Shown here one piece after another: positions 21,101-24,100 of a DNA stretch of 64,000 bases. Below the pieces are notes generated by a model, which was given only the letters and a program-made list of their open reading frames with translations, had not been told where the DNA came from and did not search any database. The translations under genes were made by a program, and so were the position numbers. The DNA is from Paramacrobiotus metropolitanus (Eukaryota > Tardigrada > Eutardigrada > Parachela > Macrobiotidae), in assembly GCF_019649055.1 (NCBI RefSeq), contig NW_026570224.1:3038001-3102000 (forward strand), given 5' to 3'. Numbering within the stretch: position 1 is the first letter of the stretch; each line of letters begins with the position of its first letter.

Positions 21101-24100
21101 TGTGGCTAAGACCTATAGCTACTCTGTAGTGTGTTTGTTGTTCCCTCAAATATCCCATAATCGTATGCTAAAAGTTACATTTATAGCACGACGATTCCAG
21201 TGAGAAATTTAAAGAAGTTGCAAAGTATAGCAACATGGTGTTTACTTCGCTGTTCTCGGTGGAATCCATGTTGAAAATTGTCGCCTTTGGGTTAAAGGTC
21301 AGTTTCCAATGCATGTCACTTATGCTTGTTTTTGTGATGATCAGGTGGACGATCCGGACGACACGTACGAAATCGTTTTGGGTTGTTTAAATATGGCCTT
21401 CACTACGATTTTTACCATTGAGTGCGGCTTGAAGATTTTGGCGTTCGGACCTAAGGTTGGCATTTGGGATAGAAACCACCTGAGCATAATTCTGTCCAAA
21501 CCGAGCATGCCGCTGCACACCATTTATTTAACTAGCAGTTTAACGTAACGTTTTTTAAGTACAAATCAGTCTTCATCCAAAATTTTTACATTTGTTTTGT
21601 TCCTAACTTTTAATGCTATTATTGACTGCTCAGTGATTTTTAAGATTAAATTAGAAGGTGAAAATTTAAAGCGATTTCCACTGTAAATATCTATCTGTAC
21701 TGAATGTGCCCTTACGAGATTTGTTTGAAATTAACTACAAATAGATAGCAGTGATTTTTCCAGTATTAAATATGATGATTTATTGGTGTTTGCAAGCGTT
21801 CATAAAACCATATGTGTCATTCTCTTAACCCTGAAACAGCCTTATTACCTGTTCTCTCCTGTCCCATGTGTCATCCTCTGGTCCAAATGTCAAAATACAT
21901 GTCCGATTTCCTGTACGACGTCTGTGTCAAGTCCGGTTGCGTCCCGCTCTGTAATGTGCTGCAGTGTTGTTATATTGCTGTGTGAGCGCATCTGTACAAA
22001 CGATGACTTAATCCCTCTTAATTTCCAGAATTATTTCCGTGAGCAATGGAATATTTTCGATTTTATCACCGTGATCGGAAGTATCATTGATACGTTCGTT
22101 TCCGAAATCGGAGAAGAGGAGTTCCCCAGTCTCAGTTTTTTGCGATTATTTCGTGCTGCCCGTTTAGTAAAATTGCTGCGGCAAGGATACACCATTCGAA
22201 TATTACTCTGGACGTTTATACAGTCATTCAAAGCGCTACCTTGGGTGTGCCTTCTCATTGGAATGCTCTTTTTCATATATGCCATTATTGGAATGCAGGT
22301 GAGAAGCTGGATTGGAATCACTCGATTACGCCACGGGAATAAGTTTAACTTCATCCTGTTTACTAATGCCGTTGTTAACGTTTTTAACAGATTTTCGGAA
22401 ACATTGAACTTGACCCATTCCGAGAAATTAATGCACATAGTAACTTCCGTTCCTTCGCTTCGTCGCTGCTGGTGCTCTTCCGGTGTGCCACCGGAGAAGC
22501 CTGGCAGCGTATAATGCTGTCATGTCTCAGCGGACAGCAGTGTGCAGCGGAGTCAGACCAGCAAGGGCCGCAGTGTGGCATGGATATGGCGTATGGCTAT
22601 TTCGTGTCTTTCGTTTTTCTGTGCTGTTTCCTGGTAAGCTGCGGCTGTCCACTCTTTCTGTTGGATTCTTATTTACACAGATTGAAACAATGTAAAAATT
22701 TTTTTTTAAAACCAGATGCTGAACTTATTTGTTGCGGTCATCATGGACAATTTTGACTATTTGACGCGTGATTCTTCCATTCTTGGTGCACATCACCTGG
22801 ACGAGTACGTGCGGTGGTGGGCGGAAAAGGATCCTGGTGCTGTGTAAGTATAACTATTATTGTTCACGGAATGTACAGTGTGCGTATACATATGATCAGT
22901 AGTGCACTAATTATTACTGCGCGAGTACTTACTGATGATGCACATATTTACAGAGGTCGAATAAGATACTCGGAGATGTACGAGCTTCTCCGGAATATGA
23001 CCCCTCCGGTAGGATTTGGCCGGCAGTGCCCATACCGACTGGCATATAAGAAACTGATCAAAATGAACATGCCGGTCGATGACGATGGGACGGTGCATTT
23101 TACAACGACTCTTTTTGCACTGATTCGTGTATCGCTGGAAATAAAACTGCGGGACCGTAAGAACTACTTTTTTCATACGGATTTGCAGGGAATTAGATGT
23201 TTAATGATGTTGGGTTCATGTTTAGCGGATGAAATGGATCAGGCTGACGAGGAGCTACGGCAAACAATACGCCGAATGTGGCCGATTCAGGCAAAGAAAA
23301 TACTTAACCTTCTAGTGCCTCCTGATGATGGTAAGCTTTTCATTCGTATGTTCGTATTGACGTTCAGTTTTTAGCTGAAGGCGTGCTTCATTTATTGCAA
23401 AAACTGTAGATGTTTTATTACGAAACTCAAAAATAGTAATTCTGATTGGCTAATTTGGAACGTACTAGCTGTTATATTCATCACAGTGCCGGTTGAGTCT
23501 GTCAGTCTCTGCCGCAGTTCTTGTCGTTTACGGTTATTATTCAGATTTATTCAAAATGAGCGCCATGAATACGTTTTGAATTCATGGAAAATAGCTAAAG
23601 TAATAACCTTTTTACCAAAAACAGCATCTAATAGATATCTGATACCCTGTAAATTATGTCTGTGGTTAGCGTAAAATGGTGGATTAATATTACCTCACAG
23701 CTGAACAGCGCATGCGGTTTTTCTGAGTGTACATACTAAAGAAATTCATTGTAGAATTAACCTATAAAAAACTAACGGTTGGAAAGATTTATGCGGGCCA
23801 TTTGATCCTTGAAAACTGGAGGAACTATAAAGAGCAAAAAGCAAAGGGCATCAACACTGGATTTGCCCAGCCGGTAAGTACACTGCCGCTTACATTGTTA
23901 ATAATGAAATTCTGATTCTAGTTGCATGGATAAAGTGAAATGACCTTTATGCATGGTGCTGACCGTCCCAAACCCGAACCCGTCTTGTTTCTTTGCTCAA
24001 ACATCCCCTATCAAAACAACCTTTTATGTGACAAAATTATATGTGAAGTTTCGTTCTAGGATTGTATATGGTATTAATTATGCTGTATACAATCTAGCGT

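What the first reader, a model, noticed from the sequence alone, without database searches (positions are those of the whole stretch)
21187..21455. Twin mutually exclusive exons for segment IVS2 of a CaV2 channel
Two homologous exons of exactly 111 nt, both phase 0, encode alternative versions of the domain IV S2 helix. The intron between them is only 47 nt, probably too short to splice, which would enforce exclusive choice. Mutually exclusive exons are well known for other CaV segments (vertebrate IIIS2 and IVS3), but I do not know of a duplicated IVS2 exon in CaV2. The two versions differ around the conserved acidic residues of the voltage sensor, so they could set gating.
Basis: partly seen in the sequence, partly recalled or inferred. 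Interest (0 to 1): 0.88.

Follow-up and report, generated by a model that had tools for sequence, protein, structure and literature searches.

The report
Either-or exon pair in tardigrade CaV2
A water bear's nerve calcium-channel gene carries two alternative versions of one voltage-sensor helix, set so close together that they probably cannot be spliced to each other, so each channel likely gets one or the other; a matching pair is already known in molluscs.

Summary
Exons A (21187-21297) and B (21345-21455) are each 111 nt, phase 0, 47 nt apart, and each encodes the repeat-IV S1-S2 loop plus S2 of a CaV2 channel. The host is a eutardigrade.

Both copies look functional: 16/37 identical, third codon positions near saturation while positions 1-2 are conserved, and all nine residues invariant in six other IVS2 sequences kept in both.

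The short-spacer argument survives a test. Of 203 introns fitted in 30 conserved genes of this genome, 199 are at least 55 nt; the 4 shorter fits are artefacts. Three CaV genes add one of 54 nt and one ambiguous case (47 or 71 nt). Double inclusion or double skipping stays in frame, so nonsense decay could not remove either.

The novelty claim fails. Aplysia CaV2 exons 33a/33b are the same kind of pair at IVS2, also listed for oyster and octopus (PMC5818475, PMC10657410). A tardigrade pair means protostome ancestry or convergence.

A lead: the spacer holds TGCATG, an Rbfox site, and the genome encodes an Rbfox RRM. No transcript data were available.

The parts
13043..26112 (+). CaV2 alpha1 gene, from the first fitted exon of repeat I to the stop codon at 26110-26112 (start not determined; exons after 23149 read by eye)
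   Evidence: spliced alignment of repeats I-IV to CaV2.1/2.2; best PDB hits CaV2; C-terminal frame
20566..20733 (+). shared upstream exon ending in IVS1, phase 0
   Evidence: donor weak (18th percentile)
21187..21297 (+). exon A: S1-S2 loop and S2 of repeat IV, version A, 37 residues
21298..21344 (+). 47-nt spacer between the donor of A and the acceptor of B
   Evidence: below the 55-nt minimum of 199 retained introns
21310..21315 (+). TGCATG, candidate Rbfox site; only plus-strand copy between 11260 and 23922
   Evidence: lead only
21345..21455 (+). exon B: S1-S2 loop and S2 of repeat IV, version B, 37 residues
22029..22298 (+). shared downstream exon starting at IVS3, phase 0

Best explanation
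A and B are an old tandem duplication of the 111-nt exon that encodes the S1-S2 loop and S2 of repeat IV of CaV2, used as mutually exclusive exons. The shared exon ending at 20733 joins either A or B, and that exon joins 22029. A is not joined to B because the 47 nt between A's donor and B's acceptor are below the shortest introns this animal's spliceosome appears to use (54-55 nt). The proteins differ in the outer loop (net charge -1 in A, -5 in B) and around the conserved acidic residue of S2, while the N, F, E and K core is kept. Shown from sequence: the duplication, the frames, constraint on both copies, a spacer below the sampled floor. Inferred: exclusive use in transcripts, the steric step, any effect on voltage sensing.
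For: Identical length, phase and borders of A and B, and the same 111-nt exon once each in two paralogs, C132 and C47. Constraint: identity by codon position 22/24/12 of 37, 9.8 expected by chance at position 3, Fisher P 0.003; nine residues invariant in six other IVS2 sequences kept in both; repeat-IV scores to PDB CaV2.2/2.1/2.3 are 250.7/243.3/228.0 bits for A and 257.3/241.0/235.4 for B, so neither copy has decayed. Spacer: 0 of 199 retained introns (203 fitted, 30 genes) are below 55 nt, 13 at 55-59 and 19 at 60-64, 95% upper bound 1.5%. The inner sites score better than the outer ones: A donor 85th and B acceptor 64th percentile against A acceptor 14th and B donor 18th (66th, 41st, 9th and 4th with the smaller CaV set). 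A+B and neither-exon transcripts stay in frame, so decay cannot purge them. Precedent: mollusc IVS2 pair; too-short spacing is a recognised cause of exclusivity, 57 (9%) of human clusters (PMC5740500, passages).
Against: No transcript data. A divergent CaV paralog (C47) has an intron that fits as 47 nt; a 71-nt reading has the better donor (10th against 2nd percentile) and I prefer it, but it is not settled. The floor comes from my own aligner on 30 genes, some of them close paralogs (L035/L036); three of the 199 lean on a flanking exon under 20 nt. I could not define a branch-point motif. The shared upstream donor is itself weak (18th percentile). In Aplysia the choice had no detected effect on synaptic depression.
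Confidence: 0.78

Rival explanations
1. Mutually exclusive use is enforced mainly by regulators: an Rbfox protein on UGCAUG in the spacer promotes A from downstream and represses B from upstream. This may add to the steric block rather than replace it.
For: TGCATG at 21310 in the spacer, expected 0.014 there; an Rbfox RRM is encoded at C30, best PDB hits RNA-binding protein 9, RBFOX1 and then ASD-1. In C. elegans FOX-1 and ASD-1 repress egl-15 exon 5B through UGCAUG in its upstream intron (PMC3585155, passages).
Against: The motif was noticed after the fact among many possible ones; no relatives to test its conservation; binding untested.
Confidence: 0.3
2. Only one copy is used; the other is a silent or decaying relic.
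For: No RNA evidence that both are used. A has a weak acceptor (14th percentile) and B a weak donor (18th).
Against: Third positions are near saturation while the protein is conserved in both; no stop (0.10 chance over 37 neutral codons), no indel, all nine invariant residues kept.
Confidence: 0.1
3. Both exons can be included together, giving a channel with an extra helix.
For: Double inclusion keeps the frame, and the inner splice sites are the better ones.
Against: The joining intron would be 47 nt, below the sampled floor. A second S2 would upset the voltage-sensor topology (general knowledge).
Confidence: 0.04
4. The pair is ordinary exon duplication of recent, tardigrade-only origin, unrelated to the mollusc pair (convergence).
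For: Ten tandem exon events in human and fly CaV genes are described as independent and all in different exons (PMC9741552 section 16), so such events arise often; the two fly papers describe only IS4 and I-II pairs in cacophony (passages).
Against: Same exon and same borders as in molluscs. A and B are no closer to each other (16/37) than each is to CaV2.2 (16/37 and 18/37), which fits great age.
Confidence: 0.55

Closest known systems
Aplysia CaV2 exons 33a/33b (eDIVS2a/eDIVS2b); IVS2 variants also listed for Crassostrea and Octopus (PMC5818475 Table 1; PMC10657410)
   Same: Two alternative exons for the S1-S2 loop and S2 of repeat IV of the single CaV2 gene; listed peptides end in ...FG.K-like motifs at the same place as A and B.
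   Different: Shown in mollusc transcripts, here only in DNA. Full mollusc exon sequences and spacer length were not seen, so common descent is untested.
Drosophila cacophony exon pairs IS4A/B and I-IIA/B (PMC11828482, PMC12370356, passages)
   Same: Mutually exclusive tandem exons in a CaV2 gene, one pair in a voltage sensor.
   Different: Other segments (IS4 and the I-II linker). No second copy of those exons was found in the adjoining introns of the tardigrade gene.
Vertebrate CaV1.2 pairs for IIIS2 and IVS3 (recalled; the finding also names them)
   Same: Duplicated voltage-sensor exons in a CaV channel.
   Different: Other channel family, other segments.
Spacing-enforced mutually exclusive exons (57 of 629 human clusters, 9%, PMC5740500, passages)
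   Same: Exons too close for the spliceosome to join them.
   Different: Here the limit is taken from sampled intron lengths, not from a mapped branch point.

Membership tests
CaV2 alpha1 channel | closest by sequence to CaV2 among solved channels | tested here: met
   three CaV2 chains rank first for repeat I, repeats II-III and both versions of repeat IV
CaV2 alpha1 channel | RxLPxxP site in the C-terminus | tested here: met
   RKLPMPP at 25831-25851, in frame with the stop; site as described in PMC10657410
CaV2 alpha1 channel | C-terminal DWC-type PDZ ligand | tested here: not met
   the read frame ends in GWA; an alternative last exon was not excluded
mutually exclusive exons | tandem homologous exons of equal length and phase | tested here: met
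mutually exclusive exons | each transcript holds one exon, never both | not testable with these tools
   no RNA data
mutually exclusive exons enforced by spacing | spacer shorter than introns the organism splices | tested here: met
   47 nt against a minimum of 55 in 199 retained introns; one ambiguous 47/71-nt case in C47
molluscan CaV2 IVS2 exon pair | same exon (S1-S2 loop plus S2 of repeat IV) | tested here: met
   position and exon ends agree with Table 1 of PMC5818475
molluscan CaV2 IVS2 exon pair | common descent of the duplication | not testable with these tools
   mollusc exons seen only as end fragments; no other tardigrade or protostome genome at hand
Rbfox-regulated exon | UGCAUG beside the exon and an Rbfox protein in the genome | tested here: met
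Rbfox-regulated exon | binding and effect on exon choice | not testable with these tools
   needs a bench test

The most novel reading that the evidence does not exclude
The IVS2 switch of CaV2 dates back to the protostome ancestor: kept in molluscs and tardigrades, lost in flies, and in tardigrades locked by a spacer below the splicing limit and perhaps tuned by Rbfox. A voltage-sensor choice in the presynaptic calcium channel would then have been kept for more than half a billion years in lineages with one CaV2 gene. The divergence allows it: A and B (16/37) are no closer to each other than each is to CaV2.2 (16/37 and 18/37), and a CaV3 exon pair is reported as conserved across protostomes (PMC9741552).
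Probability: 0.3. Interest if true: 0.66.

Novelty: new member of a known kind. Interest (0 to 1): 0.46.

Why it matters
A 2023 Aplysia study says that most of the CaV2 splice sites it examined are seen only in molluscs (PMC10657410 section 10; its species table is in a supplement I could not read, and the text does not name exon 33 in this respect). An IVS2 pair in a tardigrade means that this switch is either much older than molluscs or arose twice at the same exon. Public genomes can settle which. The case also gives a measurable example of spacing-enforced exclusivity: a spacer 7-8 nt below the shortest well-supported introns of its own genome, with the better splice sites facing each other across it.

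Tried and rejected
A 47-nt intron in the C47 paralog first seemed to show that 47 nt can be spliced. Listing the frame-keeping introns between fixed anchors gave 38, 47 and 71 nt. The 71-nt reading has the better donor (4.41 against 0.90) and a loop of CaV1.2 length (7 residues; CaV1.2). I prefer it but cannot exclude 47, because repeat IV of C47 ranks CaV2.2 slightly above CaV1.2 (357.1 against 347.4 bits), so the loop argument is weak.

Four fitted gaps under 55 nt (38, 47, 48, 49 nt; L033, L030, L032, L027) were dropped: three read straight through as HSP70-like coding in another frame, one leans on a 3-nt end exon. Only the 14 shortest fits were printed and looked at. The splice-site matrix of 198 fits was made before that and still holds three of the four artefacts. 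From 96 fits in CaV-family loci, 56 entered the curated list: C45 fits, introns of 2,000 nt or more and fits with a flanking exon under 25 nt were left out.

No third copy; no second copy in the 539-nt intron after the C132 exon; the 94- and 100-nt introns beside the C47 exon cannot hold one. RNA pairing between the flanking introns: 178 of 300 shuffles reach the best score, although repeat finder listed a 25-nt, 72% pair. Branch-point motif: none defined. Relatives in viral contigs and genome contigs: none. No structure prediction was run; without outside sequences it would not tell A from B.

PMC9741552 counts three tandem exon events in cacophony but its text does not say where the third lies, so a fly IVS2 pair is unlikely but not excluded. 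Papers seen only as passages: PMC11828482, PMC12370356, PMC11191345, PMC3585155, PMC5740500, and PMC13006486, PMC5531438, PMC5095125 (not used). Sections read: PMC5818475 section 4 part 1; PMC10657410 sections 5, 6, 8, 10; PMC9741552 section 16.

Full report
What is there. The stretch 21187-21455 holds two exons of exactly 111 nt, A (21187-21297) and B (21345-21455), both phase 0, with AG and GT at their borders, separated by 47 nt that begin with GT and end with AG. The peptides align without gaps at 16/37 identity; the score of 75 compares with a maximum of 31 in 20,000 shuffles. The DNA is only 58/111 identical, so this is neither recent nor an assembly artefact.

Which gene. The pair sits between an exon ending in IVS1 (20566-20733) and one starting at IVS3 (22029-22298). 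A spliced alignment fits four CaV repeats from 13043 onward. Pieces of the four repeats rank three CaV2 chains above the CaV1, CaV3 and sodium channels listed. The C-terminus carries RKLPMPP in frame, fitting the RxLPxxP site that PMC10657410 describes for CaV2. It ends in GWA, not in the DWC ligand named there.

Which animal. Size (169.8 Mb, 533 contigs) and a contig C1 of at least 4.437 Mb (a hit) agree with Paramacrobiotus metropolitanus, whose longest scaffold is given as 4.48 Mb (PMC11191345, passages). The species name is an inference.

The exon is old, the duplication is found here only in CaV2. Two other CaV genes of this genome have the same 111-nt exon with the same borders, once each (C132:107738-107628 and C47:354051-354161). 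Repeat IV of C132 matches CaV1 best (498.3 bits to CaV1.2, 469.1 to CaV2.2). C47 is a divergent CaV whose repeat IV ranks CaV2.2 (357.1) just above CaV1.2 (347.4). No second copy was found in the 539-nt intron after the C132 exon, and the C47 introns on either side are 94 and 100 nt. In the CaV2 gene an ungapped scan of adjoining introns found no third IVS2 copy and no other clear exon duplicate (best 31 and 34 against 78 for the A/B control).

Both copies look alive. Identity by codon position is 22, 24 and 12 of 37, with 9.8 expected by chance at position 3 (Fisher P 0.003). Nine residues invariant in six other IVS2 sequences (three CaV2, CaV1.2, C132, C47) are kept in both, including N16, F23, E26 and K30; that these form the charge-transfer core is general knowledge. 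Repeat-IV scores against CaV2.2, CaV2.1 and CaV2.3 are 250.7, 243.3 and 228.0 bits for A and 257.3, 241.0 and 235.4 for B. Whole-chain sums favour A for CaV2.1 (365.4 against 346.4) and are level for CaV2.2 (377.6 and 377.1). A and B are no closer to each other (16/37) than each is to CaV2.2 (16/37 and 18/37). This fits an old duplication or a fast-changing segment.

Is 47 nt too short to splice? Thirteen actin and HSP70-type loci raised the total to 203 in 30 loci. Four fits fell below 55 and were dropped: three read straight through as coding in another frame, one rests on a 3-nt end exon. The other 199 start at 55 and crowd the edge (13 at 55-59, 19 at 60-64). Three of them lean on a flanking exon under 20 nt, and L035/L036 are close paralogs. 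Zero below 55 in 199 gives a 95% upper bound of 1.5%. In three CaV genes, 56 curated introns include one of 54 and one, in C47, fitted as 47. The latter can also be read as 71 nt with a better donor. I prefer 71, but this is the one result that could speak against the floor. The A-B spacer is thus 7-8 nt below the shortest well-supported introns seen here, which supports a steric block without proving it.

Splice sites. Against a matrix from 198 fits (three of the dropped artefacts still among them), the inner sites are better (A donor 85th percentile, B acceptor 64th) than the outer ones (A acceptor 14th, B donor 18th); the shared upstream donor is also weak (18th). With the smaller CaV set the order is the same: 66th, 41st, 9th and 4th. 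On strength alone A would tend to join B. A+B and neither-exon transcripts would both stay in frame, while retention of the spacer meets a stop, so nonsense decay could not clean up mis-splicing.

A possible switch. The spacer contains TGCATG at 21310-21315, the only plus-strand copy between 11260 and 23922, where 0.014 would be expected in a stretch of that size. The genome encodes an Rbfox RRM whose best PDB hits are RNA-binding protein 9, RBFOX1 and then C. elegans ASD-1. In C. elegans FOX-1 and ASD-1 repress egl-15 exon 5B through UGCAUG in its upstream intron (PMC3585155, passages). By that logic Rbfox would disfavour B. The motif was noticed after the fact, so this is a lead.

What it may do. 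The outer loop (residues 1-14) has net charge -1 in A and -5 in B, and the residues around E26 differ (SVESM against TIECG). A change in local surface charge or in charge transfer is plausible, and inferred only. In Aplysia, sensory neurons and the whole nervous system favour different versions (PMC10657410 section 6), but expressing one or the other left synaptic depression and its reversal unchanged (section 8).

What is known. [quoted passage not shown] that row has no fly or vertebrate entry. PMC10657410 calls them exons 33a/33b and says most splice sites it examined are seen only in molluscs (sections 5, 6, 8, 10); its species table was not available. The fly papers describe pairs at IS4 and the I-II linker (PMC11828482, PMC12370356, passages). 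PMC9741552 (section 16) counts ten independent events in human and fly CaV genes, all in different exons, three of them in cacophony without placing the third, and describes a CaV3 pair conserved across protostomes. My searches for tardigrade reports (5 and 2 papers, listings only) showed no report of this pair; they cover open-licence PubMed Central papers only.

Verdict. What is new is its presence outside molluscs and the measured spacing argument. Whether tardigrade and mollusc pairs share one origin is the open question. It can be answered with public genomes that were not at hand here.

Noticed in passing
window 23923-24376: Four plus-strand TGCATG elements within about 450 nt in the C-terminal part of the CaV2 gene, against 22 in the whole 64-kb window; a possible Rbfox-rich stretch.
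   Followed up: no
window 26101-26112: The CaV2 reading frame ends in GWA, whereas an Aplysia study names DWC as the conserved CaV2 C-terminal PDZ ligand; the ligand may be degenerate here or in another last exon.
   Followed up: partly
L004 (C15:1674500-1680500) and C15:1719827-1720189: Two copies of a CaV repeat-IV pore fragment, 42% identical to CaV2 and with stops inside, close to the C47 paralog by eye; they look like duplicated gene remnants.
   Followed up: partly
L033 and L030 (HSP70-type loci, C6:856500-859000 and C2:3562300-3565000): HSP70 reading frames shift inside conserved coding sequence: single-base assembly errors or pseudogene marks.
   Followed up: no
L010 (C134:239500-243500): A Na/K-ATPase-like gene in which 11 of 13 fitted introns are 55-64 nt, crowded at the lower edge of intron length.
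   Followed up: no
PDB chains 8we6, 8fhs and 8eoi (CaV1.2): Their sequences align to repeat-IV S3 twice in tandem, as if both versions of a mutually exclusive exon were included in the deposited sequence.
   Followed up: no
G000:C18:629027-629119: A second Rbfox-like RRM piece (61% over residues 2-32 of the query), so there may be two Rbfox genes.
   Followed up: no
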